Source: Prolixibacter denitrificans
GTDB lineage: Bacteria > Bacteroidota > Bacteroidia > Bacteroidales > Prolixibacteraceae
NCBI RefSeq assembly: GCF_003014495.1
Contig: NZ_PYGC01000001.1
Coordinates: forward strand, 186,001 to 250,000
DNA: 64,000 nt
Direction: 5' to 3'
This document shows positions 10,166 to 47,164 of this stretch, one piece after another; within the stretch, counting starts at the first letter, position 1; each line of letters starts with the position of its first letter. Below the pieces are notes generated by a model, which was not told the DNA's origin, searched no databases, and was given only the letters and a program-made list of their open reading frames with translations. The position numbers and the translations under genes were made by a program.

Positions 10166-10190
10166 CAGCCATAGGTTAGTTATAAGACGA

Positions 10191-10221
10191 GGGGGAGTTG
10201 TTCATTCAACTCCCCTTTTTG
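10191..10221 (+). terminator. Intrinsic terminator after amtB
   Basis: GGGGAGTTG (10192-10200) and CAACTCCCC (10207-10215) form a perfect 9-bp stem with a 6-base loop, followed by TTTTTG. It ends the porin-glnK-amtB unit. Confidence 0.9.
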
Positions 10222-10316
10222 CGTTCTTACATTTCGTTTTCTCTTCTAATTATACGCGGCTTGTTCCTTTTTCAGATTTCCCTAACTTAGGAAACCTGAA
10301 TCGTAAAGCAAACATA

Positions 10317-11516: not shown

Positions 11517-11573
11517 GGAACCTTTCATCAGCCTGATTTGTATTATTACTAACAGAAATAATTATCTCGACAT

Positions 11574-12884
11574 ATGCGCAAAGACGATATCAAACTGGGA
11601 GAAGCCGTCTCGATGGGAATTGGCGGAATGGTAGGAGGCGGAATATTTGCCGTTCTCGGACTCGCCATTTCATTGAGCAAAGGAGGAACACCGGTTGCTT
11701 TTATGCTGGCCGGAATCATTACTTTATTAACGGCATATGCCTACTCTAAGCTTTCGCTGAAATATCCAAGTAAAGGTGGAACTGTCAACTTTATTAACCA
11801 GGCATTTGGCAAAACCATCTTCAGCGGAGGTGCCAACAACCTGTTATGGATTAGCTACATCATTATGCTTTCGCTGTATTCCTCAGCTTTTGGCAGCTAC
11901 GCCGGAAACCTTTTCCATGTCGTTAGTGACCCAACGCTCAATAAGCACCTGTTCATTTCGGGAATTATCATTTTCTCGACCATATTGAATTACCTCAGTG
12001 TTCGCGTTGTGGCTGAAGCAGAATCGGTTGCCGTTTACATCAAGATGACGATTCTGACGCTGTTTATTATTATTGGCGGTTATGGGCTGTTTCATGCTAA
12101 TCATCTTACTCAGTTCGAATTCAACAACTGGACCGGTCCGGTTAAATTGTTCAGCGGCGGAATGGTTATTTTCGTGGCTTACGAAGGTTTTGAGCTGATT
12201 GCCAATGCCTCATCGGATATTGTCAACCCCAAAAAAAATATTCCACGCTCCTATTTTATCGCCATCTCCATTGTGATTTTGCTTTATGTGCTGATTTCAT
12301 TTGTAACGGTCGCGTCCCTTTCGTTCGATAAGATTCAGAAAGCCCAGGAATACGTACTGGCCGAAGCCGCCAAACCGGAACTGGGACACATCGGGTTTAC
12401 CATCATCACGCTGGCAGCCATGATTTCTACGTTCACGGCAATCAATTCAACACTTTTCGGCGGAAGCCGTGTGAACTATGAATTGGGAATCGACGACGAA
12501 CTGCCACACGAGTTCACCAAGCATTTCTGGAACCAGCCGGTGGGACTTCTTTTTACTTCGGCTTTTACGTTGCTTATCGCGAATACGCTCGATCTGGAAA
12601 GCATTTCTACATCCGGTAGCGCAGGCTTTCTCATCATTTTTGCGATTGTCAACCTGGCCAACGTCCGATTGTACAAAGAAACCGCCTCGAAACGGTACAT
12701 TTCAATTGCCGGCTTTGTGATGTGCTCTGTAGCTTTTCTCTTCCTGTTAAAGAATCAACTGACGAACAATTTCTGGGGAATGATCATTTCGTTAGGCATT
12801 ATTGCCACCTCGTTTGCCATGGAGTATATTTATAAAGCTACCGAGAAGAAGAAAAAAACCGAATCGGCCTACTCCAAAGACTGA
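11574..12884 (+). CDS. APC-family amino acid/polyamine permease
   Basis: Inner-membrane transporter of 436 residues with about twelve hydrophobic helices. The first helix carries GIGGMVGGGIFAVLG, the unwound substrate-binding segment characteristic of APC transporters. FVAYEGFELIANASSDIVNP in helix 6 is the second signature. The hydrophilic tail is lysine-rich. It starts 57 bases after the MFS gene with no terminator between, so a shared transcript is possible. Amino acids or related amines are likely substrates; the specific one is unknown. Confidence 0.85.
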   Translation: MRKDDIKLGEAVSMGIGGMVGGGIFAVLGLAISLSKGGTPVAFMLAGIITLLTAYAYSKLSLKYPSKGGTVNFINQAFGKTIFSGGANNLLWISYIIMLSLYSSAFGSYAGNLFHVVSDPTLNKHLFISGIIIFSTILNYLSVRVVAEAESVAVYIKMTILTLFIIIGGYGLFHANHLTQFEFNNWTGPVKLFSGGMVIFVAYEGFELIANASSDIVNPKKNIPRSYFIAISIVILLYVLISFVTVASLSFDKIQKAQEYVLAEAAKPELGHIGFTIITLAAMISTFTAINSTLFGGSRVNYELGIDDELPHEFTKHFWNQPVGLLFTSAFTLLIANTLDLESISTSGSAGFLIIFAIVNLANVRLYKETASKRYISIAGFVMCSVAFLFLLKNQLTNNFWGMIISLGIIATSFAMEYIYKATEKKKKTESAYSKD

Positions 12885-12973
12885 CAAAAAATTTCGTGCT
12901 TCAGATTCCGGGTAAATCAAACCTCCGGCCGTTTCGACTGTTTTATGGAGAGAATACCCTAAAACAAATCAGA

Positions 12974-32824: not shown

Positions 32825-32872
32825 TGTCGGTCTGCAGGGATTCGAACCCTGGACCCGCTGATTAAGAGTCAG
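32825..32872. repeat. Distal attachment-site repeat (displaced 3' half of tRNA-Lys)
   Basis: 48 bases identical to 47090-47137. It contains only the anticodon and T-arm side of the tRNA, so it is not a functional tRNA gene. It marks the end of the element next to the integrase. Confidence 0.95.
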
Positions 32873-33019: not shown

Positions 33020-34300
33020 ATGCAAAAAGACAAAGCATTTACAGAAATTCGAAAAGACAGAATTGAAAATGTCACATTGGCTCTCACATTGGATACCAGG
33101 CGACCAACTGACAAATTACCGGTTGCAGTAAGAGTAAATAAAGAGAGGAAGACAATCTATTACCGTACAGGTCTCAGATGTACTTTGGATGAGTGGGAGA
33201 AGATATCCAAATCTGCCAAAAGAGGGATAAACTTTGAAATAAAGAAATCCCAAATAGCAATCTATGACAAGGTAAAAGCGAACGTTGATTACCTCTTAAG
33301 GGAAAACTCATTCAACTTCGACAATTTAAAGTCAAGTTTGACTGGAGAGAAGTCATCCAACTTTTCAATATTTTGGAAGGATTTCGCGGATAGTAAAAAA
33401 GTAGGGACGCGCAAGAGTTATCTTAATGCCTTAAACTCTTTCTCATCTGCTGTTGGAACAAATATCGATTTCAGCAGTGTTTCACAATTGATGATTGAGA
33501 AGTGGAAAAGCAAGATGGAGAGAAACGGTCTAAGCAACACTACTCAGGGAATATATTTTAGGGCCTGTAGAGCCGTTGTAAATGATTGCATAAGACAAGG
33601 CCTAATAAAAAGAAATCAGTACCCATTTGGCCGGGGGAAAGTCATAATAAGGAGAGGTAGGAGTCGCAAAGATGAATTTTTAGACGTTTCCACCATTAAA
33701 AAATTAATGCGATTTGAACCTCCGGAGGAATGGTTGAAGGGATATGCTGACGCTGTGGTTGAAGCAATAAACTTCTGGATGTTCTCGTATTTAGGTAATG
33801 GCTTAAATCTCGCCGATATCGCCCAGTTGAAATATGAGAAACACTATTTCGAGTCTGGTAAAACCGAATTAAAATTCATACGTGAAAAAACAAAAGACAC
33901 GACAGATGAGGATGTCGAGATAATAATACCAATTATTCCAGAGGTGCAGAAAATACTGGACAACTACGGAGATGTTCCGGAGCCTGACAATTTTGTTTTC
34001 CCACAAATCCTGAATGGAGAAACAGATCCATTCAGGATAAAAGACATTGTAACACAACACAACTCAAATATTCGGAGTCGGATACAGGTAGCTTGCAAGA
34101 TACTTGGGATAGAGAAAAACCTAAGCATGACATGGGCGCGACATTCCTTTGCAACTAATTTAACTATTGCAGGTGTATCTGAACGATATATTAGCCAGGC
34201 AATGGGACATTCAACAAAAAAAAGCATAACACAAGGTTACATCGGCTTGTTTCCGCCTGAAAAAAGGATGAAGTTTAACAAAATGCTGTTGGAGGAATAG
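33020..34300 (+). CDS. int: Tyrosine recombinase/integrase
   Basis: Site-specific recombinase of 426 residues that would integrate and excise the element at tRNA-Lys. It has an N-terminal arm-binding domain, a SAM-like core-binding domain (about 110-200) and a C-terminal catalytic domain (about 220-420). Visible catalytic residues are Arg374 (WARHSFAT), His397 (MGHSTKK) and Tyr407 (GYIGL). The first catalytic arginine is replaced by Asn260 (SYLGNGLNLAD), and the usual His of HxxR is Thr371. Such replacements occur in other Bacteroidota integrases, including the IntDOT type at the first arginine. The start lies 148 bases inside the att repeat, as expected. Confidence 0.93.
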   Translation: MQKDKAFTEIRKDRIENVTLALTLDTRRPTDKLPVAVRVNKERKTIYYRTGLRCTLDEWEKISKSAKRGINFEIKKSQIAIYDKVKANVDYLLRENSFNFDNLKSSLTGEKSSNFSIFWKDFADSKKVGTRKSYLNALNSFSSAVGTNIDFSSVSQLMIEKWKSKMERNGLSNTTQGIYFRACRAVVNDCIRQGLIKRNQYPFGRGKVIIRRGRSRKDEFLDVSTIKKLMRFEPPEEWLKGYADAVVEAINFWMFSYLGNGLNLADIAQLKYEKHYFESGKTELKFIREKTKDTTDEDVEIIIPIIPEVQKILDNYGDVPEPDNFVFPQILNGETDPFRIKDIVTQHNSNIRSRIQVACKILGIEKNLSMTWARHSFATNLTIAGVSERYISQAMGHSTKKSITQGYIGLFPPEKRMKFNKMLLEE

Positions 34301-34302
34301 AT

Positions 34303-35079
34303 ATGAGCGATAAACCATATTTAAGACTGATTGAAATTCTCGATGGCCTATATAATCCTGATTATATTGAAAAGGAGAATGATATAGATTGGGCCGACCT
34401 GGAAATAAAGGCTACCGAAAGTATAATAGAAGAACTATTCCATTTCCAAAACGATGAACAGCGAACCGGGTTTTTAAATTTCTTTTTTAGAAGAATTTTT
34501 AATCAGGGAAAGGATTATAATTTGGGTTTGTTGAAACGTCAATATATTCCTGACAATTGGACCAAATCAGAATACGAATACATTAAAAATTGCAAACTTG
34601 TTCTTAATGGCCTGATAACTGACGTTTCGGAAGCCTGTCTGCAATATGATGGTATAGATTTTACCGAAATCATGGAAAACAATATCAAAACATCCACTGA
34701 AGAAAGACCTGATTTTGTTTGGTATGTAAAAACAAAATCTACACCTGAGACTGATATTTCAACCAGAAAACAGAGCTTATCTATACCCCAAATTGCACTT
34801 AAATATTATTACGAAGGTGAACTAATTACCAGAGACAACGGTCCAGAAATTGCAAAAAAATACGGTTTTACATCCAAAACATCAGGAGAGAAATTATATC
34901 AAAATTTCACGTTTTATTCAAAGACATCTAACAGAACTGGAGACCCTGGAACCAAAATAAAGATGAAAAATATAATAGGTCTTGTTAAATCTGTAATAGA
35001 GTTGTTGCCAGAAAACAAGAAGACAAAACCAACCGACGAGGTTAAAATACTAGAAAAGAGACTACTGAAAGAATATTAA
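34303..35079 (+). CDS. Integrase-linked accessory protein of unknown function
   Basis: A 258-residue cytoplasmic protein starting 3 bases after the integrase stop; GGAGG at the integrase end provides a ribosome site. The C-terminal third (ALKYYYEGELITRDNGPEIAKKYGF, SGEKLYQNFTFYSK, then a lysine-rich end) resembles a conserved segment that often follows integrases in Bacteroidota mobile elements. It looks like a helix-rich DNA-associated domain. The N-terminal part is acidic and unrecognised. A role in integration or excision is inferred only from position. Confidence 0.75.
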   Translation: MSDKPYLRLIEILDGLYNPDYIEKENDIDWADLEIKATESIIEELFHFQNDEQRTGFLNFFFRRIFNQGKDYNLGLLKRQYIPDNWTKSEYEYIKNCKLVLNGLITDVSEACLQYDGIDFTEIMENNIKTSTEERPDFVWYVKTKSTPETDISTRKQSLSIPQIALKYYYEGELITRDNGPEIAKKYGFTSKTSGEKLYQNFTFYSKTSNRTGDPGTKIKMKNIIGLVKSVIELLPENKKTKPTDEVKILEKRLLKEY

Positions 35080-35159
35080 TTTTTTTATAACCGGTTATAA
35101 CCGGTCACAGCTTTTTCTTCATGCGACCTTTACACAAGAAACATCAAATCTTGTGTAAA

Positions 35160-35444
35160 ATGAATAATCCTTTTGAAGTAATTGACGCTCGGCTAAGCAC
35201 AATTGAAGAACTCCTCATCGAATTAAAACACGGGCCAACAAGAGTCGAAAAAACCAATAGGCAAAAACTAAATGGCATCCGTGGAATAGCCAAATATCTT
35301 AAATGTTCCGTACGCACCGCTCAAGCACTAAAGGACAAAGGTTTATTTCCAGTGTATTGGGTCGGTAAAAATCTGTATGCTTATTCAGATGAGGTGGAAG
35401 AAGGGCTGAAAGAGAAAACCGCCAGATCAAATCACTCGAAATAA
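35160..35444 (+). CDS. Small helix-turn-helix DNA-binding protein (DUF3853-like)
   Basis: A 94-residue protein from the ATG at 35160 (MNNPFEVIDARL); an ATG 39 bases earlier is possible. The C-terminal half (GIRGIAKYLKCSVRTAQALKDKG, then a short wing LFPVYWVGKNLYAY) is an excisionase/MerR-like winged helix-turn-helix. The N-terminal helix could mediate dimerisation. Such proteins in Bacteroidota elements act as excisionases or regulators. The replication gene starts 5 bases downstream with a GTG. Confidence 0.7.
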   Translation: MNNPFEVIDARLSTIEELLIELKHGPTRVEKTNRQKLNGIRGIAKYLKCSVRTAQALKDKGLFPVYWVGKNLYAYSDEVEEGLKEKTARSNHSK

Positions 35445-35449
35445 TCCCA

Positions 35450-36220
35450 GTGATACCAGAAGGATACATATTGCAGCCTAGAGCTATCGACCAATCCGAC
35501 ATCATACATGAATCTCCAGTTGTGAGAGAGTTATGGTTTTACCTTCTCAGGAAAGTAAACCATAAAGATAATGGCAAATACAGACGGGGGGAAGGTTTTT
35601 TCAACCTATCGGGGATTGCCGAGGACCTTCACTGGTGGGTTGGATACAGGAAGAAGAAGTATTCAAAACCGCAGCTTACGAAATCTCTAGGAAGGCTACG
35701 CGAAAGAAATATGGTAGAAACAGCGAAGGCAACGCGAGGACTAATCGTAACAATCTGTAAATACGACTATTATCAAGACCCAGAAAACTACGTAGGCAAC
35801 AGCGAAGGAAATACGAAGGAAACACGAAAGAAAAGACAGGGCTCCACTAAGAACAATAACAAAGAAGAAGGGAATAATGTAAGAATAAGAGAAATCATAG
35901 ATTTCTATAACGAAACTTGCGTTTCGCTTCCTCCAGTAAAAGCTTTAACGGATAAAAGAATTCAATCCATCAATGCCCGAATTCGTGAACATGGAATAGA
36001 TAGCGTTAAATCGATGCTCACGAACGCTTCAAAATCTACATTTCTTTCCGGACAAAACGGAAGAAACTGGATAGCCGATTTTGGATGGCTGTTCAAACCT
36101 GAAAATTTCATAAAAGTATTGGAAGGAAAGTATGACTATAAGAAATCTGAATCAGAGAAAGGATTTAGGATAGGACAAAAATTACATACGAATAAATACC
36201 AAAAAAAATTAGAATGGTAA
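35450..36220 (+). CDS. Phage-type replication initiator protein
   Basis: A 256-residue protein starting with GTG. The N-terminal winged-helix domain (VRELWFYLLRKVNHKDN, FFNLSGIAEDLHWW, KPQLTKSLGRLRERNMV) resembles replisome-organiser/DnaD-like phage proteins. A charged linker (about 115-150) leads to a C-terminal domain with FYNETCVSLPPVKALTDKR and NWIADFGWLFKPENFIKVLEGKY, a signature of many phage replication proteins that load the helicase. Its last 7 bases overlap the DnaC-like gene, strong evidence for a functional pair. Confidence 0.82.
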   Translation: MIPEGYILQPRAIDQSDIIHESPVVRELWFYLLRKVNHKDNGKYRRGEGFFNLSGIAEDLHWWVGYRKKKYSKPQLTKSLGRLRERNMVETAKATRGLIVTICKYDYYQDPENYVGNSEGNTKETRKKRQGSTKNNNKEEGNNVRIREIIDFYNETCVSLPPVKALTDKRIQSINARIREHGIDSVKSMLTNASKSTFLSGQNGRNWIADFGWLFKPENFIKVLEGKYDYKKSESEKGFRIGQKLHTNKYQKKLEW

Positions 36221-36816
36221 ATGTAAATTTCAACGAGGCGCTGAAGAATCTTCAGATTGCAAAAGTGGATGTGATACGCAAAGCAACATCCTTTTCGTTT
36301 GGCACCGTTCCGGAATGCAAAAAGCTTTTTGAGGATGCATTCAAATATGTTGACCACACTGCACGGCCGTTTATCTGGCAACATGAGTATGACCATGTAG
36401 TAAATTGGATGCATGACACCAGAGGCAAAGGATTGTTCCTCACAGGCGACATGGGGCGCGGAAAGTCTGTTATCATTATGCAGGTTATTCCACTGCTTTT
36501 TCATGTGAAGTTTAGAAAAAACATTCACCCGGTTTCAGCGGAGGAAATCCCCAATAAACTAGAACAAATAGCGAACCGTCCATTTGTGTGTATTGATGAT
36601 CTAGGAACAGAGGCGGCAGTAAACAATTATGGAGAAAGGTTCGAAGGTTTTATGCGGATTGTCAACGTATGCGAAACTAATCTAAAGCCCCTTTTTGTTT
36701 CATCCAACTTGAATTCAGAGCAGATTATGAAACGCTACGACGAAAGAACTTTAGATAGAATTGCCAGGCTTTGTAAAGTCGTGAAATTTGAAGGAGTTAG
36801 CTTAAGACCGCAGTAA
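36214..36816 (+). CDS. DnaC-like helicase-loading AAA+ ATPase
   Basis: A 200-residue AAA+ protein. Walker A is GDMGRGKS (residues 78-85), Walker B is FVCIDDLGTE (Asp128-Asp129), sensor 1 lies in LFVSSNLNSEQ, and an arginine-finger region follows in YDERTLDRIARL. It lacks the long N-terminal helicase-binding part of E. coli DnaC, as phage loaders often do. It overlaps the initiator gene by 7 bases. It would load the host replicative helicase on the excised element. Confidence 0.88.
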   Translation: MVNVNFNEALKNLQIAKVDVIRKATSFSFGTVPECKKLFEDAFKYVDHTARPFIWQHEYDHVVNWMHDTRGKGLFLTGDMGRGKSVIIMQVIPLLFHVKFRKNIHPVSAEEIPNKLEQIANRPFVCIDDLGTEAAVNNYGERFEGFMRIVNVCETNLKPLFVSSNLNSEQIMKRYDERTLDRIARLCKVVKFEGVSLRPQ

Positions 36817-37013: not shown

Positions 37014-37742
37014 ATGTCAGAAAGCACTTACCAAACAACTTTGAATGAATCGGTCCTGATGGACGTTTCAAAGATATTTTCGGCCTTTGTCGATGAATTG
37101 TCAAAGCTCATTTCATCTGTCACATTGAGCTCGACAGGTTTGGCGAAGAGTGGCATTTGGCGGTCTGTGGCGACCAAACAAAAGATTGAAACTTTAATAC
37201 ATCTACTCTCCGAATCGATGATTTTGTACGCAGAGGACGCCGCACTGAAGCATTGGAAGCGCGCGGAGCTCAAGATGAACGACAGAGCAAAAAAAGCCCT
37301 ATCATCCTCGGACAGGACTTTTAATCAGGATGAGCTGGTCCGGATATTTAACATCAACCTCAATAACCTTCCCGCATCTTCTTTTTCTGTCGATGAAGTA
37401 GAATCATTCTCATTCGACAAGCGGAAATTAAAGGCGTTTCTATCCGGCTCCTTCAATAAAGGGGTTTTATCAGTAAGGGAACGGGTAGAATCAATTACGC
37501 AGTACCTCATTGATGATATCGAATTTATTGTAAAGGAGAATATTGAGAGTGCAGGATCCATGGCAAGTATGGATTCCCATCTTCGTGAACTTATGATCTC
37601 AATGAGGTACAAACGGAACCGGGTATTTATGTCTTACCTGAATATGCTCAGTCTTTTGTCAAAGATAGCCTACATAGAGGCTATGCTGAACCGCCGCGAG
37701 ATACTCGAAACCATTATCCCAGACTATCGCTCAAAAAATTAA
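37014..37742 (+). CDS. Unknown helical protein of the satellite-like element
   Basis: A 242-residue protein I do not recognise. It reads as almost entirely alpha-helical with a serine-rich N-terminal third and charged amphipathic helices (VESITQYLIDDIEFIVKENI). It has no signal peptide, no membrane segment and no obvious catalytic motif. It is the first gene after the regulatory gap and is followed 16 bases later by another unknown, then the tape measure. A virion or assembly role is possible from position only. Confidence 0.75.
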   Translation: MSESTYQTTLNESVLMDVSKIFSAFVDELSKLISSVTLSSTGLAKSGIWRSVATKQKIETLIHLLSESMILYAEDAALKHWKRAELKMNDRAKKALSSSDRTFNQDELVRIFNINLNNLPASSFSVDEVESFSFDKRKLKAFLSGSFNKGVLSVRERVESITQYLIDDIEFIVKENIESAGSMASMDSHLRELMISMRYKRNRVFMSYLNMLSLLSKIAYIEAMLNRREILETIIPDYRSKN

Positions 37743-37758
37743 CTAAACCTACCTAATC

Positions 37759-38349
37759 ATGACAGATAAAGACCTCGATCAATACATCGAAAAGAACTAC
37801 CGAAAGTTTCTTGACTATGCCAATTTTCACGCCTCGCGTAATGGCCTGACCAATTTAGGCTCCGAGCTTCTGAATTTTGTCCTGGAGATTGTCCTGGGAG
37901 ATATGGACCGGGGGAAGGTCCTCGATTTGTTAGGGCGCAAGTACGGCAACTACAACGAGCTGCACACCTACATCCTAGGCATGATTAAAATCAACGCCTT
38001 CTCTCCCCGCTCCGACTTTCACCGGAAAGTACTCAACCGGCTCCCCATCGATGACAATGTGAATGTATCCCACCTCCTTTTAACGGATGAAACAGAGATG
38101 CAGCGGGATATCTCAGGCGATGTGGTAAGGGAAATGAACGTCTTGAGGTTATTGTCTAGTCGCGTATTGAATGACGAGGAGTTGAGGCTGTTCAATCAGA
38201 AATACATAAAGATGGACCACCTGTCTAATCTTGAGGGCAAGCAAGAGGTAATGTATAAGATAATGAACGGTGCCGATGAGAAACTAAAGGCAATGGTCAA
38301 GTTTTGCCAATTCCTTGTAAAGGATAAGGCAGCGGTAATGGAACTGTAA
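37759..38349 (+). CDS. Unknown protein with possible sigma-region-2-like helices
   Basis: A 196-residue protein not securely recognised. The N-terminal pattern (YRKFLDYANFHASRNG, then LGSELLNFVLEIVL, then HTYILGMIKINAFSPRSDFHRK) resembles the helix order of sigma-70 region 2 in small phage sigma-like proteins. The C-terminus lacks a clear region 4. It stands 12 bases ahead of the tape-measure gene. It could be a late transcription factor or an assembly protein; I cannot choose between them from the sequence. Confidence 0.7.
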   Translation: MTDKDLDQYIEKNYRKFLDYANFHASRNGLTNLGSELLNFVLEIVLGDMDRGKVLDLLGRKYGNYNELHTYILGMIKINAFSPRSDFHRKVLNRLPIDDNVNVSHLLLTDETEMQRDISGDVVREMNVLRLLSSRVLNDEELRLFNQKYIKMDHLSNLEGKQEVMYKIMNGADEKLKAMVKFCQFLVKDKAAVMEL

Positions 38350-38361
38350 AAAATAAGCATC

Positions 38362-41300
38362 ATGAGCGACACGGGAGCATTATATTTTGTTGTTGACCTT
38401 GACGTTAGGAAGCTATATGCCGATATCGAAAATGTCAATAAAAAAATCGAAAAGATGGCCGATAATTCCATTGCGCAGGGTAAGCGAATGGATGACACCT
38501 TCAGAGCTGTCGGTGGTGCCATTGCCGGGTATTTCTCTCTTCGGTCAATGGCTGAGTTTGCTAAACAAGTAGGTTCTGTACGAGGTGAGTTTGAGCAGCT
38601 GGATATCTCTTTGCAGACGATGCTCAAAAGTAAGGATAAGGCCGACAGGCTCATGCAGCAAGTGACACAGTTTGCCGCCACTACCCCATTTGAATTGAAA
38701 GATATTAGCAAAGGTACCAAGCAGCTTCTTGCATTCCAGGTAGGCGCCAATGACATTATTCCCACTCTTACAGAATTAGGTGACCTCGCATCCGGGCTGA
38801 ATACTCCACTTAGCGAGCTGATATCTGCATACGGAAAAGTGAAAGCCAAAGGTAAACTACAGGCCGAAGAGATGAACATGTTTTTGGAAAGGGGTATTCC
38901 ACTCGTTTCGGAACTGGCGAAAAAGTATGGTGTGGCCGAAAGTGCCATTTACACCATGGCCAGCCAAAGTAAAATCTCATTCCAGGACCTGCAGGATGTG
39001 CTGCATAAGCTAACGGCAGACGGCGGCATGTTTGCCGGCATGATGGAGAAGCAATCTCATTCAATCCTTGGTATGGTTTCCAACTTACAGGATAGTTGGG
39101 ATTTGATGCTGAACAACATGGGTAAAGCAAATCAAGGAATGATTTACGATACCATTGGGTTCGCCCAGACGCTGGTTGCCAACTACCAAAGCATAATTGA
39201 TATTATCAAGGTATTGATTGCTACAGCCGGAGCATATAAGGCTGCTGAAATTGTGGCCGGATTGATTGAACAGGCACAAGCTGCCGGGTCGCTGGCAAAA
39301 GCCCTGAAAGAAACAGCTATTGCACAAAAAACGCTTAACCTATTGCAGAAAGCTAGTCCTATTGGGTTAGTAGTGGGTGCATTTACAGCTCTAATTACTT
39401 CTCTTGCATTATTTGGGAAAGAAGCTGATAAAACCACTGAGAAGATTGACCAGATTAAACAGAGTGCAAAAGATGCCGCAGGTGAAGGTATCGATAAGGA
39501 GATTGCAAACATTGACGTACTTCTCGGGAAGCTGAAAAATGTAAACAATCAATCAGGAGACCGGGCGAAAGTTATCAATACCATCAATTCACAATATGGT
39601 AGTTATCTGAAGAATCTACTTACTGAAAAGACGGCCTATCAGGATATCGAGAAGGCACTGATAAACGTCAAGAATCAACTGAAAGAGAAGATTGAACTCG
39701 AAGCACTATCACAACAGGCCACTTCACTATATAAGAACGTCCGGAAATATCAGAGCCTGATTGATGAGGTATCAAAGATGAGTGTTGATAAGTTCAATAA
39801 AGAATTTGTGGGCAAGAATAAAGACCTCATAAAGGATGTTATGGGTAAATACGCTGTTGGAGGCTCGATCGTTGAAGGTGTGCAGGGAGCATTTAGGCAG
39901 CAATTCATAGATAACATCCAATACATTTTAAAGAGATTCAAAGACGAATACAACAAAATCATAAAGGACATCAATGACCGGACATCCGGGAAAGGTAACG
40001 GAGGTGGAGGTGGCGGCGGTGTACCCGGGTTCGATGAGGATAAATTCAAAGCCCAATTAAAAGCTGCGAAAAAGGATTACCAGGATTATGCAAGCCTTAT
40101 TTCAGAGGAGTCAAGAAAGCAGTATGTGGCAGATTCAAAATATGTCACTGAAGGCAAAAAGACTTTTGAAGATTACCTAAAAGACCTGTATGAGAAGGCA
40201 AAGACTATCGGGGAGAAGATCCAGATTGAAATATTTGCAGCCGGTGAAGGCATTAAACTGAACTCTTCACCCATCCCGAAAAAATTGACGCCAAAAACCG
40301 GCTCTCAATTGTCGGGTGGTTTGAGTAATACGAAACAGGGGCTCGAAACTCAGAAGTTGCTTTCTCAGGCAAACCTAAAGGTAGAAAAGCAAATCACCGA
40401 AGAGAAGAAACGTCAGCAGAAGATATTTGAAAAGAATATGCAGACGCTCGACAATATGCTTTATGCCACCGGGCATCTGGTTGCTAAATATTCTCAACAG
40501 CTTGGCCTCACAGAGGACCAGTCGAAAGTTTTACAGGATGGTCTGAACGCTATGAGCGGCATCGCCGATATCGCCCGGGGTGACGTATTGGGAGGTAGTA
40601 TCAAGATAATTGATTCAATGCTTTCACAATTCCTAAAGGCGAATGAAGCTATTTCGGTGCACTACGAGAATGTTCAGAAGAACATCGAGAAGTTGGTCAA
40701 TTCTGTCAATATTGCGAACGAAGCCCTCGCAAATATTGGCTCCAGGAATATCCGTCAAAATTTGGCCCTCATCAATAGTCAAATATCAAGCCTGACAAAA
40801 GAAGCTGCGAATCTGGCAAAACAACTCGATGGTCAATATTCAGGCAGGCGAAACTATACTGGTAACTCAGGCTCTACTGCCGTCAGTTATTATGGTATTG
40901 TACGTGATGAGGTGGCCAGCCTTGAAGAGAGTATTAAAACACTTTCAAGTAGGTTGCTTTCTGAGAGCATTTCCGACGACCAGCGCAAAGCGATTGAAGC
41001 CATTTTACAAAGCTACAACGAGCTAAAGGCGCAAATGGATTCAATGACGCAGGATATCACCGGTACCACTGTTCAGGATTTGGCCGATTCAATTGCCCAG
41101 GCTTTCATTGACGGAACGGATGCGGCTGAATCATGGGGAAAAGCTGTTGACAATATTATCCGGAAGGTCATCATTGACCAATTAACGGCAAAGTTACTTA
41201 CCAAGCCTATTCAGGATGCAATTGACCAGCTGGTGTCTGATACACAAGGTGGATTGACTACGCAGGAAGCTGATAAATTCAAACAATCGATTCAGAATAT

Positions 41301-41634
41301 TGCCGACCAGGTAGGACCAGCATTTGAACAAGCTCAACAGGCTCTTGCAGATATTGGAATCAATATCAGCTCAACTGCAGATGCTGCTTCAGGATTAGCC
41401 GGACAGGTTAGCCGGTCCATTACCGAAGATACTGCTTCTGAACTGGTAGGATTATGGAACCGGACAGCTTTAGATACCCGGGCGATACGCGACAATTCAA
41501 AGTTGGCCATCACTCATCTGGCAAAGATTGAGGCGAATACCGGTACAATTGCAAGAAACAGTGATTATCTGAAAAAGCTGGATTCTATCGATTCCAGACT
41601 AGCGAAGCTAAGCACAAGCGGAAGCAGAATATAA
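38362..41634 (+). CDS. Phage tail tape-measure protein
   Basis: A 1090-residue tape-measure protein. The N-terminal tape-measure domain (about 60-260) shows FAATTPFELKDISKGTKQLL, LGDLASGLNTPLSELISAYG and GIPLVSELAKKYGV, typical of the family. A hydrophobic stretch (about 275-355) follows, as is usual for the part that enters the cell membrane. Long coiled-coil segments, a poly-glycine linker (about 545-553) and a C-terminal helical end (ITHLAKIEANTGTIARNSDYL) complete it. In phages it fixes tail length and helps DNA entry. No tail tube, chaperone or baseplate gene accompanies it. Confidence 0.93.
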   Translation: MSDTGALYFVVDLDVRKLYADIENVNKKIEKMADNSIAQGKRMDDTFRAVGGAIAGYFSLRSMAEFAKQVGSVRGEFEQLDISLQTMLKSKDKADRLMQQVTQFAATTPFELKDISKGTKQLLAFQVGANDIIPTLTELGDLASGLNTPLSELISAYGKVKAKGKLQAEEMNMFLERGIPLVSELAKKYGVAESAIYTMASQSKISFQDLQDVLHKLTADGGMFAGMMEKQSHSILGMVSNLQDSWDLMLNNMGKANQGMIYDTIGFAQTLVANYQSIIDIIKVLIATAGAYKAAEIVAGLIEQAQAAGSLAKALKETAIAQKTLNLLQKASPIGLVVGAFTALITSLALFGKEADKTTEKIDQIKQSAKDAAGEGIDKEIANIDVLLGKLKNVNNQSGDRAKVINTINSQYGSYLKNLLTEKTAYQDIEKALINVKNQLKEKIELEALSQQATSLYKNVRKYQSLIDEVSKMSVDKFNKEFVGKNKDLIKDVMGKYAVGGSIVEGVQGAFRQQFIDNIQYILKRFKDEYNKIIKDINDRTSGKGNGGGGGGGVPGFDEDKFKAQLKAAKKDYQDYASLISEESRKQYVADSKYVTEGKKTFEDYLKDLYEKAKTIGEKIQIEIFAAGEGIKLNSSPIPKKLTPKTGSQLSGGLSNTKQGLETQKLLSQANLKVEKQITEEKKRQQKIFEKNMQTLDNMLYATGHLVAKYSQQLGLTEDQSKVLQDGLNAMSGIADIARGDVLGGSIKIIDSMLSQFLKANEAISVHYENVQKNIEKLVNSVNIANEALANIGSRNIRQNLALINSQISSLTKEAANLAKQLDGQYSGRRNYTGNSGSTAVSYYGIVRDEVASLEESIKTLSSRLLSESISDDQRKAIEAILQSYNELKAQMDSMTQDITGTTVQDLADSIAQAFIDGTDAAESWGKAVDNIIRKVIIDQLTAKLLTKPIQDAIDQLVSDTQGGLTTQEADKFKQSIQNIADQVGPAFEQAQQALADIGINISSTADAASGLAGQVSRSITEDTASELVGLWNRTALDTRAIRDNSKLAITHLAKIEANTGTIARNSDYLKKLDSIDSRLAKLSTSGSRI

Positions 41635-42331: not shown

Positions 42332-42547
42332 ATGAATATTAGTTTGATGAAAAAAATCGTCAGAGAAGTTGACAAGAATCAAATTCCCGAAAGCTTTCTA
42401 AAGGGCCGGACCATCGAATCTGAGGCCGATTTAAGCGCAGTAGTGGAATCCTACCGGGAAACCGTCGGGACTGTTAAATCGGTCAAAAGCGATGAAGATT
42501 TGAATAAAGATATTCAAGAATGGGCCGCAAAAGGTAGCGATAAATGA
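42332..42547 (+). CDS. Small unknown acidic protein
   Basis: 71 residues, without signal peptide or membrane helix, rich in Glu, Asp, Lys and Ser (TIESEADLSAVVESYRETVG). It starts 18 bases after the preceding gene and is followed by a small hairpin at 42551-42568. A regulator or chaperone-like protein is possible; nothing in the sequence decides. Confidence 0.6.
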   Translation: MNISLMKKIVREVDKNQIPESFLKGRTIESEADLSAVVESYRETVGTVKSVKSDEDLNKDIQEWAAKGSDK

Positions 42548-42588: not shown

Positions 42589-43752
42589 ATGAACGACTTC
42601 GAAAAAAAACACATTAACAACGCCCTCCGGAATGCTAGTTTGATTGGGCGTCTTTATGATGATTTGGTGAAAAAAATGGCCCGGTTGCTTAGTCAGTATA
42701 AGCCTACCGGGGCAAAATCAGTGTGGGATGGAAACAAGGCCCTTGAGCGGAAACTTGACCAACTCCTGCAGTCGTTTGGCGTGACACTTACCGGGCACCT
42801 GAAAGAGATGATTGAGAAAGATTGGGAGCTGGCAGAACAAAAGAACGACGAGCTGGTAAAGAATCTTCTCAAGGGTTCAACTGTTACGGTTGCCGGCGTT
42901 GTGGTTTACGATTTATTCAACCGGAAAAGGCCGGGCAAGTCGGTCCGTGTAATACTCAAGAGCATCAAAAACCTTTTCAAAAGGAAAAAATCAGATGTGA
43001 AGCTGTCGGATGTGATGGCGGCCCCCCGCCGGAGAGAAGCCCTATTGCAGTTTTTGAACAGGAAAGAGGGAGGCATGGGCCTTTCTGAGCGTGTCTGGAA
43101 GCTCACAAAGCTAAACAAGTCCATGATTGAGGAGTTGCTCCATAATAATATCATCCAGGGAGGCAGCGCGGCCCAAAATGCAACCCATCTAAAAAAGTAC
43201 CTCAATAATCCGGACATGTACTTCCGGCGGGTGAGAAATAAGAAAACAGGTAAGCTGGAATTGTCAGCCAGAGCAAAAGAATTTCACCCAGGGCGAGGTG
43301 TATACCGGTCCAGTTATCAGAACGCGTTGAGGCTGGCCCAAACCGAAACAAACATGGGTTACAGGATGGCCGACCATAACCGCTGGAAGAATAATCCTAC
43401 GGTTGTAGGCTTCGAGGTAAAAACTTCGCATAACCACCCCACAGAGGATATGTGTGATGACCTGAAGGGAGAATATCCAAAGGACTTCATTTTTACAGGC
43501 TGGCATCCAAAGTGTATTTGCTATGCGGTCCCCGTTATGCTGTCAGATAAAGAATTTGAATCGCATGAAGATGCAATTCTCACCGGTCAAGAGCCGAAAA
43601 TCAACAGCAAAAACCGTGTAAGGTCAGTGCCGGCCGGATTTAATCGATGGATAAAAAGCAAGGCTAAGGCATCAAAGGGGTGGAAAAATCAACCGTACTT
43701 CATCCGGGACAACTTCAAGGGAGGCAAGATAGAAGGAGGTTTGAGGTTATAG
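42589..43752 (+). CDS. MuF/SPP1-gp7-like phage head morphogenesis protein
   Basis: A 387-residue minor-capsid-type protein. The N-terminal half is helical and basic. The MuF-like domain (about 220-325) contains YRSSYQNALRLAQTETNMGY, RMADHNRW, then VVGFEVKTSHNHPTEDMCDD and GWHPKCICYAVPV, with the Cys/His pattern of the family. In phages such proteins sit at the portal and are made next to it, and some enter the host. Here no portal gene is present. The C-terminal tail (RSVPAGFNRWIKSKAKASKGW) is basic. I see no toxin domain fused to it. Confidence 0.85.
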   Translation: MNDFEKKHINNALRNASLIGRLYDDLVKKMARLLSQYKPTGAKSVWDGNKALERKLDQLLQSFGVTLTGHLKEMIEKDWELAEQKNDELVKNLLKGSTVTVAGVVVYDLFNRKRPGKSVRVILKSIKNLFKRKKSDVKLSDVMAAPRRREALLQFLNRKEGGMGLSERVWKLTKLNKSMIEELLHNNIIQGGSAAQNATHLKKYLNNPDMYFRRVRNKKTGKLELSARAKEFHPGRGVYRSSYQNALRLAQTETNMGYRMADHNRWKNNPTVVGFEVKTSHNHPTEDMCDDLKGEYPKDFIFTGWHPKCICYAVPVMLSDKEFESHEDAILTGQEPKINSKNRVRSVPAGFNRWIKSKAKASKGWKNQPYFIRDNFKGGKIEGGLRL

Positions 43753-43841: not shown

Positions 43842-44591
43842 ATGGAGTTATCAAAATTAAGTAACGAGGAAAAAGGGAACCTGGCCATTGAGCTGGTTAA
43901 GTCCCTAAAATCAGATGGCGCTGACATCAGCACGCTAAAAGACGAGCTTCTCTCTGTCGATTTAAAACCGGATGACAGTGGAAGGGTAAGATCAGGAACC
44001 AACCGGATTAAGCTCGGCCAACTAGAAAACGATATTCGCAGAGCCGTTGAGTTTATTAATGGCCCCCTGCATTCGGCATTTGACAGTTTGGGCGTTGAAT
44101 TCTCATTCGAGTTGGTGAAAGATGTTTTTTCTGGCGGCAGCAAGTTCGGTGAATTATTCAACAGCAAACTACACAAGGACCTTTCTTTGATGTCTATTCC
44201 GGCATCCAGAACACTAATTGAGAATTCGGCCAGAGACGGGCTCCAGGAATTCAATAATGTTGTCAGTGATGGCAGGAGTCGGTTCGGATATAGCGTGTTC
44301 GATTTCATCACTTTTGAGGATGGATCTGCAGTGTTTTCCGATGACGGGATGAACCATCTCCAGGATGAATGCGGTATTTTCCTTTCAGACCCAGAAGAAA
44401 TCAGTCTTTATTCTGCCCATCTCAAAGCATGTGACGCACTGAACGACCTATTCGGCGGCTACGCCCGTATGGATTGGCATAAGATATTTGATTTTGAAAA
44501 GGACGGCACGTTTAAACCTTCCCCGGTGTATTATGACGTGCTGTTGAACGGTATCAAAAACGCAAAAGGCAAGAACGATGGAAAAGACTGA
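43842..44591 (+). CDS. Unknown protein after the MuF-like gene
   Basis: A 249-residue soluble protein I do not recognise. The N-terminus is helical (LSNEEKGNLAIELVKSLKSD); the middle contains LISxxx-like hydrophobic strands and FGYSVFDFITFEDGSAVFSDDG. It overlaps the next small gene by 14 bases, so the two are coupled. It starts 89 bases after the MuF-like gene. A capsid-associated role is conceivable, but it does not look like an HK97-type major capsid protein. Confidence 0.72.
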   Translation: MELSKLSNEEKGNLAIELVKSLKSDGADISTLKDELLSVDLKPDDSGRVRSGTNRIKLGQLENDIRRAVEFINGPLHSAFDSLGVEFSFELVKDVFSGGSKFGELFNSKLHKDLSLMSIPASRTLIENSARDGLQEFNNVVSDGRSRFGYSVFDFITFEDGSAVFSDDGMNHLQDECGIFLSDPEEISLYSAHLKACDALNDLFGGYARMDWHKIFDFEKDGTFKPSPVYYDVLLNGIKNAKGKNDGKD

Positions 44592-44826
44592 ATCGCAACA
44601 GATAGCGGAAATCATTGACAACGGCACCCAGAAAATAGCTGAGGCGTCCGGAAAGAAGTACAAGCCGATTGAATTCGAGCAGGAGAAACAGCCCACAGAA
44701 GAAGAGCGACAGCAGCTCAGTGATAAGGTTGTAGGGCAAATAAAGGAGGGTGAAAAAGAAGAGGAAAAAAAGATGGCCGAGCATGTGAAAATGTTTGGGG
44801 AAAAGCCGAAAAATGTTTTCTGGTAG
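44578..44826 (+). CDS. Small highly charged unknown protein
   Basis: 82 residues, dominated by Glu and Lys (EQEKQPTEEERQQLSDKVVGQ, KEGEKEEEKKMAEHVK), probably one long helix. It overlaps the preceding gene by 14 bases. Scaffold-like or chaperone-like proteins of phages share this composition, but this is compositional resemblance only. Confidence 0.65.
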   Translation: MEKTESQQIAEIIDNGTQKIAEASGKKYKPIEFEQEKQPTEEERQQLSDKVVGQIKEGEKEEEKKMAEHVKMFGEKPKNVFW

Positions 44827-45066: not shown

Positions 45067-45537
45067 ATGCCAGCACCGAAGGGAAATAAAAACGCAGTAG
45101 GCAACAAAGGAGGCCGAAAGACCAGCTTTAAACAGGAGTATTGCGAACAGGCTTACCAGCTTACTTTACTTGGAGCCATAGACAAGGAATTAGCTGATTT
45201 CTTTCACGTAAGCCAGAGAACTATCAACTACTGGAAAAAGACACACAAGGAGTTCGCGGAGGAAGTCCGAAGGGGTAAAGATATGGCAGATGCTAATGTG
45301 GCCGAGAGACTCTATCAGCGGGCCCTTGGATTTGAGCATGACGCGGTAGAGATAAAGGTTGTTAATGGTGAAGTTCTCAAAGTTCCAATCAGGAAGGTTT
45401 ATCCCCCGGACGTAATGGCCGCTACTTTTTGGCTCAAAAATCGTCAACCTACCAAATGGAGAGACAAGCAGGATGTCAACGTCGAGGGTGAAGGGCTGAA
45501 CCCTACCGTCATTATTTTGCCCTCAAATGACCGTTAA
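45067..45537 (+). CDS. terS: Terminase small subunit (orphan)
   Basis: A 156-residue DNA-recognition subunit of phage packaging. It begins with a basic GNKNAVGNKGGRKT stretch, followed by a helix-turn-helix (IDKELADFFHVSQRTINYWKK), an oligomerisation helix (EEVRRGKDMADANVAERLYQ) and the typical C-terminal PPDVMAATFWLKNRQPTKW ending in VEGEGLNPTVIIL. In a normal phage the large terminase gene follows directly. Here about 600 bases with no large subunit follow, and none occurs elsewhere in the element. Satellites of other phyla use their own TerS with a helper's large subunit. Confidence 0.88.
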   Translation: MPAPKGNKNAVGNKGGRKTSFKQEYCEQAYQLTLLGAIDKELADFFHVSQRTINYWKKTHKEFAEEVRRGKDMADANVAERLYQRALGFEHDAVEIKVVNGEVLKVPIRKVYPPDVMAATFWLKNRQPTKWRDKQDVNVEGEGLNPTVIILPSNDR

Positions 45538-46030: not shown

Positions 46031-46125
46031 AGCCGGGTAGACCTGTTTGGAGTTGCTCCCGTGGACAGGAATACTACTTCCTTGAGCTTTGCTTTAGGTT
46101 TTTGTTATTGGACACCTGCCCGGTT
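46031..46125 (+). ncRNA. Candidate structured RNA (three-way junction)
   Basis: A closing stem of 10 pairs (46031-46040 with 46116-46125, including G-T pairs) encloses two hairpins. Hairpin one is CCTGT (46042-46046) with ACAGG (46065-46069), containing GGAG/CTCC. Hairpin two is CCTTGAGC with GCTTTAGG (46080-46098, one mismatch and one G-T pair). The element lies between a good promoter and the ATG at 46144, so it is either a 5' leader regulator or a separate small RNA. I do not recognise a known class. Confidence 0.5.
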
Positions 46126-46143
46126 GCCTCAATATTAAATGAT

Positions 46144-46671
46144 ATGTCCAATAACATTGCAAAAAAAGATGAAAGCGTAATGCTTGAAAACGGTTCGAAA
46201 CTCCTTATTGATACCGTAAAAATACACTGGAATAGTGTTGACATCCCAGAAACCATTAGAGCATTGAACAATGTTTTTTTCTCATGGGTAGCTGCAGCTG
46301 ATTGGGAGCACAAATACAGAAGCTCTAACTCCAGCGAATTCCACAACCTCATCGAATTTCTACTTGACATAGAGCCGGTATTGGCAGATATAGAATTGGC
46401 CGGAACCGCAAAATCAGACGTTGAGCGCAATGATGTAAATCAAACACCTTCGAAGGAGAGTGAGGATAAGGTGAGCATTGAAATTACCAAATCCGGATGG
46501 CAGATCACTGTTAACAACAACGGAAATAAGGAAACTCAGACTCATCTTGTCTCAAACGGGAAAGCCGCATTGGCTGATTCACGGTTTGATGACAAAAAGA
46601 TTGATAGAAGCATTATTGATGCCCTGCGCGGAGTTGACCTTATCAATGTTTCTGAAGCTCTTAATAATTGA
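46144..46671 (+). CDS. Unknown protein near the right end of the element
   Basis: A 175-residue soluble protein from the ATG at 46144 (MSNNIAKKDESVM); the frame is open about 110 bases further upstream but through the structured RNA. The N-terminal part is helical (WNSVDIPETIRALNNVFFSW). A central acidic linker (about 112-130) precedes a small beta-rich piece (VSIEITKSGWQITVNNNGNK). It is not recognised. It has its own promoter and structured leader, unlike the other genes of the element, which hints at independent expression in the integrated state. Confidence 0.65.
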   Translation: MSNNIAKKDESVMLENGSKLLIDTVKIHWNSVDIPETIRALNNVFFSWVAAADWEHKYRSSNSSEFHNLIEFLLDIEPVLADIELAGTAKSDVERNDVNQTPSKESEDKVSIEITKSGWQITVNNNGNKETQTHLVSNGKAALADSRFDDKKIDRSIIDALRGVDLINVSEALNN

Positions 46672-46693: not shown

Positions 46694-46981
46694 ATGATTA
46701 CAGCAACAGAAGCACAACTAGAAAGGATATTCCGAAGGATTTATACTCTTGGTGAGAGAAACGGAGCCGAAAAGGTACTGGTTGAGCAAGGTAAGATTCC
46801 GGATTACATCCGAAGAACCGAAGCTAAAAAGCGTATTGGACCTTCTACTTATGCAAAGTTGGTAAAAAAAGGATTCCTGCACGAGAGGAAGATGGATTCA
46901 AGTAAACCGAATAGTCCGATAGTGATTCCAAGGGATGAATTCAACTATGTCCAAATGATGGTCGATAATCCGACGTTTTGA
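46694..46981 (+). CDS. Small helix-turn-helix protein at the right end
   Basis: 95 residues. The segment YIRRTEAKKRIGPSTYAKLVKKG followed by a short wing and VIPRDEFNYV looks like an excisionase/MerR-like DNA-binding fold. It lies 22 bases after the preceding gene and ends 40 bases before the right-end repeats. A role as excisionase or as regulator of the end promoter is plausible. There is a second such protein (35160-35444) near the left end. Confidence 0.65.
   Translation: MITATEAQLERIFRRIYTLGERNGAEKVLVEQGKIPDYIRRTEAKKRIGPSTYAKLVKKGFLHERKMDSSKPNSPIVIPRDEFNYVQMMVDNPTF

Positions 46982-47089: not shown

Positions 47090-47164
<75 letters not shown>

What the first reader, a model, noticed from the sequence alone, without database searches (positions are those of the whole stretch)
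38362..41634. A satellite-like element carrying its own full-length tape-measure protein
The 1090-residue tape measure is complete, from its N-terminal domain to its C-terminal helical end, yet no tail tube, tail chaperone or baseplate gene accompanies it. Tape measures set tail length and help DNA cross the host inner membrane. A satellite replacing the helper's tape measure could redirect particle length or entry specificity. This would be a different hijacking strategy from the capsid-size or TerS-based ones.
Basis: partly seen in the sequence, partly recalled or inferred. Interest (0 to 1): 0.78.

Follow-up and report, generated by a model that had tools for sequence, protein, structure and literature searches.

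The report
Satellite element carrying tape-measure and packaging genes
A 14-kb piece of parasitic DNA in a Bacteroidota chromosome carries its own versions of a few proteins that sit inside a phage particle, including a full-length tail ruler, and probably builds mixed particles by fitting them into another phage's shell and tail.

Summary
A complete 1090-aa tape measure protein (TMP, 38362-41634) lies in a 14.27-kb element integrated in tRNA-Lys (perfect 48-bp repeats at 32825 and 47090). It has integrase and replication genes; profiles of a related phage's portal, capsid, large terminase, connector, baseplate and tail genes found none there at E<0.01. So TMP is used alongside TerS, not instead of it.

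The case is not isolated. I found five further satellite-like elements with open TMP genes, two with att repeats. Satellite TMPs interleave with phage TMPs, so TMPs moved between the two several times. Two sister satellites differ in carrying TMP or a gp10-like tail-completion gene after MuF. One satellite TMP is 75-79% identical to phage TMPs at nearly equal length (1168 versus 1160 and 1164 aa), against a changed tail length there.

A 2026 Nature paper (PMC12987554) showed that Vibrio PLE satellites build chimeric tails with their own TMP, so the principle is known. New is a Bacteroidota family with siphophage-type genes carrying mainly interior proteins. Mobilisation and incorporation are inferred.

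The parts
32825..32872 (.). attL: 48-bp copy of the 3' end of tRNA-Lys
   Evidence: 100% identical to 47090-47137, spacing 14265
33020..34300 (+). tyrosine integrase
   Evidence: phrog_1 E=2.9e-27; Pfam Phage_integrase, Phage_int_SAM_5
34303..35079 (+). unknown 258 aa, directly after int
   Evidence: no PHROG or Pfam hit at E<=0.1
35121..35444 (+). small helix-turn-helix / excisionase-like protein
   Evidence: weak: HTH_17 and DUF3853 below cut-off; phrog_66 E=0.024
35450..36220 (+). DnaD-like replication initiation protein
   Evidence: phrog_10469 E=1.1e-29
36214..36816 (+). DnaC-like helicase loader
   Evidence: phrog_3277 E=1.1e-19
37014..37742 (+). second MuF-like protein (resembles the N-terminal part of MuF), 242 aa
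   Evidence: MuF profile E=1.0e-5 and 5.5e-8; as a single sequence only E=0.02
37759..38349 (+). u196: sigma-like regulator also found in prophages upstream of TerS
   Evidence: 11 hits in 30 prophage loci, some of which overlap; predicted fold resembles sigma factors, below significance in Foldseek
38362..41634 (+). tape measure protein, 1090 aa, complete
   Evidence: phrog_9959 E=3.2e-138, TMP_3; no stops, one TM-like segment
41645..42313 (+). unknown 222 aa
   Evidence: no clear family; E=0.041 to the gp08 tail/baseplate profile
42332..42547 (+). 71-aa piece of a phage scaffold protein (candidate capsid-size factor)
   Evidence: scaffold profile 22.5 bits, best of 20,000 shuffles 17.3; E=3.4e-5. 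One of three family members tested hits phrog_172 head scaffolding (E=4.4e-6), all three hit phrog_5824, unknown function
42589..43752 (+). MuF / SPP1 gp7-type minor head protein, 387 aa
   Evidence: phrog_35295 E=1.6e-83, phrog_7625 head morphogenesis E=6.3e-46
43842..44591 (+). u249: probable divergent member of a family seen in satellite-like elements
   Evidence: weak single-sequence links, best E=0.0014; placed in alignment A6 by me
44578..44826 (+). unknown 82 aa
   Evidence: no family
45067..45537 (+). terminase small subunit (TerS)
   Evidence: phrog_309 E=4.8e-50; 42.6% to RAP44 TerS
46102..46671 (+). unknown 189 aa
   Evidence: no clear family
46694..46981 (+). unknown 95 aa
   Evidence: no family
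47090..47137 (.). attR, inside tRNA-Lys(CTT) 47091-47164 (-)

Best explanation
This is a helper-dependent phage satellite of Bacteroidota. It integrates at tRNA-Lys and replicates itself with DnaD/DnaC-type proteins. After a related siphophage infects or is induced, it packages its DNA with its own TerS. It supplies its own TMP and MuF proteins in place of the helper's, so that particles have the helper's shell, tube and baseplate but the satellite's interior proteins (a chimeric virion). The likely benefit is control of assembly and DNA delivery: the satellite does not depend on the helper's TMP, which defences and exclusion systems can target. Shown: the element, the intact genes, the absence of recognisable shell, tube and baseplate genes, repeated movement of TMPs between phages and satellites, and nearly unchanged TMP length in one case. 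Inferred: mobilisation, incorporation into virions, and the benefit.
For: Perfect att repeats and intact integrase and replication genes. Six TMP-carrying satellite-like elements: the window; G041 Mariniphaga sp. (43-bp perfect repeats at tRNA-Pro, 16.2 kb); G252 (63-bp repeats, 92% identical, at tRNA-Pro, 13.4 kb apart); L121 and L147 in IMG/VR; G082. The order of TMP, MuF and TerS differs among the four that have all three. In a quick tree of 26 TMP N-terminal parts, 6 satellite TMPs need 5 label changes, at least 4 forced by starred branches; 9 satellite and 23 phage MuFs need 4, at least 3 forced. The G041 satellite's TMP groups with phages L141 and L127, its MuF with L141, L127 and G025. 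The L121 satellite's TMP and MuF both group with one 43.8-kb phage contig (L146 and L116 are pieces of it): TMP 74.6%, MuF 66.2% identical. L121 TMP versus phage TMPs: dN/dS 0.08 and 0.06, dS near saturation. Sister satellites L115 and L121 (94-95% identical in their outer parts, 86% over TerS-MuF) differ in a gp10-like gene versus TMP after MuF. Of 21 late-gene profiles against 12 elements, hits at E<1e-4 were MuF, TerS, gp20 and a scaffold piece only. In SaPI1/80alpha virions the tail completion protein caps the DNA end and binds TMP N-termini (PMC11661146 section 8), and gp44, a minor capsid protein of 80alpha, is an ejection protein that binds DNA ends (PMC7290940 abstract, discussion; that MuF is the same kind is by family knowledge). 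PLE satellites put their own TMP in virions (PMC12987554).
Against: No induction, particle or transfer data. No SPP1-type portal in six hosts (four of TMP satellites, two of uncertain elements; 0 of 6, control 2 of 14), so no co-resident helper of this phage type was found; helpers with other portals were not looked for. TAC and baseplate-hub genes, which PLEs carry with TMP, were not recognised. Of 9 distinct MuF-bearing satellites of more than 10 kb only 4 carry TMP, so TMP is optional. G082 has no TerS or MuF recognised and no att repeat found. G041, its GenBank MAG and the IMG/VR contig are 100% identical and count once. L169 joins a satellite-like front to TerS-TerL, so the border with prophages is not sharp. 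A 322-aa protein of the uncertain G037 element matches the RAP44 tail protein gp13 (329 aa) at E=0.0057, so that element may hold another tail gene.
Confidence: 0.6

Rival explanations
1. The TMP (and short TMP-like pieces) act as interference factors: they poison or titrate helper tail assembly rather than enter satellite particles.
For: In the G041 satellite an early protein (L025:3380-4339, 319 aa) begins with a 28-aa imitation of the TMP N-terminus: 29.4 bits, best of 20,000 shuffles 13.3. Among ORFs under 700 aa it is the only clear match that is not a TMP or TMP piece (longer ORFs were not listed). Satellites are known to block tails: Rta of PLE11 (PMC12987554) and Tai (PMC11364771, passages).
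Against: A poison need not be full-length, keep both ends and stay 75-79% identical to phage TMPs at nearly equal length with dN/dS of 0.06-0.08. PLE TMP is incorporated into virions.
Confidence: 0.15
2. The satellite TMP has a different length and makes tails of another length, which is the point of carrying it.
For: TMP sets tail length; PLE11 tails are 10 nm shorter than ICP1's (PMC12987554). Satellite TMPs range from 1090 to 1764 aa.
Against: Closest satellite-phage pairs: 1168 versus 1160 and 1164 aa. The window TMP (1090) is close in length to the TMP of the G025 prophage that shares its C-terminal half (1075).
Confidence: 0.08
3. A decaying prophage that kept a few genes by chance.
For: No helper of this type in the genome; several unknown genes; the uncertain element in G023 has a split integrase.
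Against: Perfect att sites, intact ORFs, gene order TMP-MuF-TerS unlike the RAP44 order, a similar small gene set in unrelated elements, replication genes of its own, and IMG/VR sisters that differ by a cassette.
Confidence: 0.07
4. A complete small phage whose capsid, tube and baseplate proteins are too divergent to recognise.
For: Ten proteins of unknown or weakly known function remain.
Against: The longest unknown ORF has 258 aa, which leaves no room for portal, TerL or baseplate; the late-gene profile search was negative; 14.3 kb is small for a siphophage.
Confidence: 0.04

Closest known systems
PLE satellites of Vibrio with chimeric tails (PMC12987554)
   Same: Integrated satellite that encodes its own TMP and leaves tube and other tail parts to the helper
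   Different: PLE carries TMP with TAC and sometimes BhuB and parasitises ICP1, which has a contractile tail. Here TMP comes with TerS and mostly MuF, or with a gp20-family (HK97 gp10-like) protein, in Bacteroidota and with siphophage-type genes; no TAC or hub recognised. Sequence homology to PLE genes was not tested
PICIs / SaPIs
   Same: Small integrated element with own TerS and a small scaffold-like protein comparable with CpmB (PMC12409344, passages)
   Different: SaPI1 virions use the 80alpha neck, tail completion protein and TMP (PMC11661146); the elements here bring TMP, MuF or a tail completion protein. Stl/AlpA-type switch not tested
cf-PICIs
   Same: Bring structural genes; some have putative tmp genes (PMC12987554, Extended Data Fig. 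10 legend)
   Different: cf-PICIs encode their own capsids (PMC12409344, passage); no MCP, portal or TerL profile hit here
RAP44-type siphophages (Riemerella phage RAP44, NC_019490)
   Same: Homologous TMP, MuF, TerS and scaffold family
   Different: Complete 49-kb phage with the order TerS-TerL-portal-MuF-scaffold-MCP-tail

Membership tests
Integrative phage satellite | small element with integrase and att repeats | tested here: met
   14,265 bp spacing, 48-bp repeats at tRNA-Lys
Integrative phage satellite | own replication module | tested here: met
   DnaD-like and DnaC-like
Integrative phage satellite | lacks genes for a complete virion | tested here: met
   no portal, TerL, MCP or connector profile hit in the window element
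Integrative phage satellite | mobilised by a helper phage | not testable with these tools
   no induction data; no resident helper with SPP1-type portal
PLE-type chimeric-tail satellite | encodes a full TMP | tested here: met
PLE-type chimeric-tail satellite | encodes TAC next to TMP | tested here: inconclusive
   profiles of the RAP44 genes upstream of TMP (gp16, gp17) hit nothing in 12 elements except a 48-aa ORF in L121 at E=0.017; TACs diverge widely
PLE-type chimeric-tail satellite | satellite TMP replaces helper TMP in virions | not testable with these tools
   needs particles
PLE-type chimeric-tail satellite | homology to PLE genes | not tested
   no PLE sequence was fetched
PICI/SaPI | own TerS for packaging | tested here: met
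   phrog_309 E=4.8e-50
PICI/SaPI | capsid-size redirector | tested here: inconclusive
   71-aa scaffold fragment by sequence only
PICI/SaPI | Stl/AlpA-type divergent control region | not tested
   -
cf-PICI | encodes its own capsid, portal and packaging set | tested here: not met
   no MCP, portal or TerL profile hit

The most novel reading that the evidence does not exclude
An inside/outside rule: this satellite class takes from phages mainly the proteins inside the particle or on the DNA line (TerS, MuF, tail completion protein, TMP, sometimes a scaffold piece) and leaves shell, tube and baseplate to helpers. Satellite particles would look like the helper outside but deliver DNA with the satellite's own ejection proteins, for example to pass exclusion or defence systems that recognise the helper's TMP. 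Hint: escape mutations of phage Bas14 from improved SNIPE lie at TMP aa 100-150 (PMC13190303), and the L121 satellite TMP departs from its two closest phages most at aa 101-200 (32 of 84 phage-conserved sites changed against 78 of 816 elsewhere; the region was chosen after seeing the profile).
Probability: 0.3. Interest if true: 0.8.

Novelty: new variant of a known kind. Interest (0 to 1): 0.6.

Why it matters
It extends satellite-encoded tape measures from Vibrio PLEs and putative cf-PICI cases to a Bacteroidota family with siphophage-type genes, shows that TMPs moved between phages and satellites several times, and gives a natural experiment: two sister satellites that differ in TMP versus a tail-completion gene. 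[quoted passage not shown] a satellite whose TMP is nearly the same length as the phage's suggests the benefit is not tail length as such.

Tried and rejected
Rejected: TMP as sole hijack gene (TerS, MuF and scaffold piece found). Rejected as unlikely: changed tail length, prophage remnant (see rivals). u196 as satellite-only marker: it is also in prophages. The aa 101-200 divergence as satellite-specific: aa 91-210 of the L121 TMP are 75.6% identical in the phage-like contig L149, so it is at most a variable, exchangeable region. u222 as a member of the u249 family: not supported (hhalign probability 0.5). Fold search of u249: no match with E <= 0.001. u196 fold search: no Foldseek match with E <= 0.001; the VIA rows shown are nearly all sigma-factor chains (5uxx_C Z 8.1, 3.4 A, 81 residues; 3vfz_A Z 7.3, 1.9 A, 58 residues), but Z of this size is common for helical models. 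Hits of the hallmark family in G114, G168, G211, G229, G259, G378, G409 and G661 were not counted; G339 (L176) has int and the hallmark but no TMP or MuF profile hit and was not counted. Set aside before counting satellites: L166, L167 (short contigs), L169 (has TerL), L027/L028 (TMP, integrase and a weak TerS-like hit, but no significant hallmark); L111/L113/L114/L117/L134 merged as one type, L122/L123 merged. PHROG or Pfam was run on chosen proteins of the window and of L022, L023, L025, L027, L028, L029, L084, L104, L113, L115, L121, L122, L139 and L175; all other loci, L145-L147 included, were read only with profiles that I built. Direct repeats were looked for and not found in L027, L028, L029, L134 and L168 apart from short internal ones; L168 has no intact forward integrase (66-aa piece).
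Full report
OBSERVATION. The ORF at 38362-41634 is a complete tape measure protein. It is one gene of an element between two perfect 48-bp repeats, 32825-32872 and 47090-47137, the second lying in tRNA-Lys(CTT). The genes listed under parts run in one direction: integrase, unknown, HTH-like, DnaD-like, DnaC-like, MuF-like u242, sigma-like u196, TMP, unknown u222, 71-aa scaffold piece, MuF, u249, unknown, TerS, two unknowns. The flanks are ordinary chromosomal genes: a GH3 glycosidase and a FAD oxidoreductase. IMG/VR holds the same element as a 14,107-base contig (L021). The TMP_3 family occurs once in the host genome. Two genomes that the genome search places in the same family as the host, G041 and G025, match contigs of Mariniphaga sp. 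(100% DNA identity) and Gaoshiqia sediminis (equal contig length and gene position); Mariniphaga is a Prolixibacteraceae, so the host is probably one too.

WHAT IS MISSING. I built profiles for 21 late genes of the RAP44 phage type, from 1 to 30 proteins each (three from RAP44 alone), and ran them without filters on ORFs of 12 elements. Hits at E<1e-4 were MuF (9 of 12 elements, plus u242), TerS in the window, gp20 in L115 and L175, the scaffold family in the window, and an 88-aa HTH-like ORF of L147 against TerS (8.1e-6). TerS of G041, L121 and L113 belongs to another family (phrog_51). Portal, MCP, gp18, gp19, gp21, gp22 and gp24 gave no hit at E<0.05. TerL, gp08 and gp17 gave hits of 0.034, 0.041 and 0.017. 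The RAP44 tail protein gp13 (329 aa) matched a 322-aa protein of the uncertain G037 element at 0.0057, which I cannot dismiss. TMP was followed with its own profile.

RELATIVES. 14 of 100 genomes, own included, have a TMP match and 7 of 100 a MuF match. G025, G083 and G088 are prophages of the RAP44 kind, but in G041 (Mariniphaga sp. LH_M28) MuF lies directly before TMP. That element has 43-bp perfect repeats at tRNA-Pro 16,197 bp apart, integrase, DnaD, DnaC, MuF, TMP (1354 aa), a u196 homologue and TerS. At order level, 28 of 393 genomes, own included, have MuF and 6 of 393 have u196. Of the 11 stretches I read around these, 8 have portal or MCP (L083, L084, L086, L087, L088, L090, L091, L092) and 3 do not (L085, L089, L093) and were not resolved. 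IMG/VR gave elements with MuF, mostly TerS, and integrase, DnaD or DnaB as far as the contig reaches, without portal, MCP or TerL: L111, L113, L114, L115, L117, L121, L122, L123, L147, L165, L168. One type is in Petrimonas sp. IBARAKI (L134). Merging near-identical ones gives 9 distinct MuF-bearing satellites of more than 10 kb (window, G041, Petrimonas type, L115, L121, L122/L123, L147, L165, L168); 4 of these 9 carry TMP (window, G041, L121, L147). Two further elements carry TMP without MuF: G252 (L175; repeats 92% identical, 13,405 bp apart, at tRNA-Pro; integrase, TerS, u200-family gene, TMP 1556 aa, gp20-family gene) and G082 (L029; integrase, DnaD, DnaC, TMP 1764 aa, no att repeat found). 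Two elements of one genus, G023 and G037, have integrase, TMP and a weak TerS-like gene but no significant hallmark and are left uncertain.

A SATELLITE FAMILY MARK. Genes u200 (L121 and Petrimonas types), u192 (G041) and, more weakly, u250 (G041), u249 (window) and u209 (G082) look like one divergent family; a profile of them finds further members in G252 (3.0e-9) and G339 (3.6e-7). Among the loci held no hit with E<0.01 was in a prophage with capsid genes, and the G041 member has no match in 50,697 phages. Its rate is low: 11 of 393 genomes at E<=0.01, including own and G082, whose genes are in the profile, and 7 weak ones; 2 of 395 across the phylum, own included. The window member is linked only weakly by single-sequence search (best E 0.0014 to G082, 0.01-0.016 to the u200 type), so its membership is likely, not proven. 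Function unknown; the predicted fold (mean pLDDT 73) has no significant match.

EVOLUTION OF THE TMPs. In a quick IQ-TREE tree (SH-aLRT only) of 26 N-terminal TMP regions, six satellite TMPs need 5 label changes against phages, at least 4 forced by starred branches; the tool warned of long branches (L112, and the G025 and L136 groups), none of them next to a satellite. For MuF (9 satellites, 23 phages) the numbers are 4 and 3. So these genes moved between phages and satellites several times; the trees do not give the direction. The G041 satellite's TMP groups with phages L141 and L127, its MuF with L141, L127 and G025. The L121 satellite's TMP and MuF both group with one 43.8-kb phage contig (L146 and L116 are pieces of it): TMP 74.6% over 1161 aligned residues, MuF 66.2%. 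The L121 TMP is 1168 aa, those of phages L145 and L146 are 1160 and 1164. dN/dS was 0.08 and 0.06, with dS 1.8 and 3.0, so the ratios are rough but clearly below 1. The window TMP has no such close partner: its first part is nearest to phage G088 and its last 400 residues to the G025 prophage, as in a recombinant.

CASSETTE. L115 and L121 are sisters: 94.7% identical over DnaD-DnaB, 93.9% over the right part, 85.8% over TerS-MuF. After MuF, L121 has TMP (9453-12959) and L115 has a 152-aa gene with Pfam HK97-gp10_like, 30.6 bits against a cut-off of 21.4. HK97 gp10 is named as an equivalent of the 80alpha tail completion protein gp51, which caps the DNA end and binds the N-termini of three TMP chains in SaPI1 particles (PMC11661146, abstract and section 8 read). 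G252 has TMP and a gene of the same gp20 family side by side (4.8e-34; for Pfam gp10 it is below cut-off).

SCAFFOLD PIECE AND OTHERS. The 71-aa protein matches columns 131-182 of the 219-column scaffold profile with 22.5 bits; 0 of 20,000 shuffles reach that (best 17.3). SaPI CpmB competes with the phage scaffold (PMC12409344, passages), so a capsid-size role is a fair guess, no more. u196 has homologues in many prophages between replication and terminase genes and a sigma-like predicted fold, so it may switch on late genes. In the G041 satellite a 319-aa early protein starts with a copy of the TMP N-terminus (28 aa, 29.4 bits, shuffles up to 13.3). This could be a factor that competes with the helper's TMP; I saw it in one satellite only.

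MECHANISM. Proven elsewhere: PLE satellites put their own TMP in otherwise helper-built tails, exclude the helper's TMP, and lose 96-99.9% of transfer without it; tmp genes are also predicted in other Vibrio satellites and cf-PICIs (PMC12987554, abstract, passages and sections 8-9 read). The family here fits the same scheme with another choice of parts: MuF where PLE has TAC and hub. The minor capsid protein gp44 of 80alpha is an ejection protein that binds and protects DNA ends (PMC7290940, abstract and discussion read; that MuF here does the same is inference). TMP serves injection across the inner membrane and is what SNIPE recognises (PMC13190303, abstract and section 8 read). Hence the bolder reading, that satellites bring their own delivery proteins to pass barriers against the helper. 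The clustering of changes at aa 101-200 of the L121 TMP (32 of 84 versus 78 of 816 phage-conserved sites, Fisher p 8.5e-11, region chosen after seeing the profile) agrees with that, but it rests on one satellite and two phages, and a phage-like contig, L149, carries a similar stretch.

NOVELTY. Searches of the held open-access library (one search listed 15 of 25 papers) returned the PLE paper, with its mention of other Vibrio satellites and cf-PICIs, and no other listed paper whose title or abstract start describes a satellite-encoded TMP or a Bacteroidota family of this kind. [quoted passage not shown] Subscription papers and preprints outside the library were not seen. Verdict: new variant of a known kind.

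Noticed in passing
L025:3380-4339 (G041 satellite): Early 319-aa protein starts with a 28-aa imitation of the TMP N-terminus fused to an unrelated part; possible TMP decoy.
   Followed up: partly
window:37014-37742: Second MuF-like protein (242 aa) upstream of TMP, similar to the N-terminal part of MuF.
   Followed up: partly
MuF hits against satellites: Prophage MuF frames are often long (up to a 1046-aa open frame, though some are about 345 aa), while satellite MuFs are 340-387 aa, i.e. the short form without a long C-terminal extension.
   Followed up: no
L169: Satellite-like front (int-DnaD-DnaB-MuF) followed by TerS and TerL at the contig end; may be a bridge to full phages.
   Followed up: no
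L027:5384-6547 against L028:13646-14809: Integrase split into two ORFs in G023 but intact in G037, in otherwise similar elements with neighbouring ORFs of similar length.
   Followed up: no
L115:7818-8049 and L121:9175-9406: A 232-bp stretch, 90.5% identical, lies next to the differing cassette in both sister satellites; could be a recombination or packaging site.
   Followed up: no
L145:2530-8584: Phage contig with TerS, a 483-aa ORF and, after one short reverse ORF, TMP: packaging and tail genes together, an order unlike RAP44.
   Followed up: no
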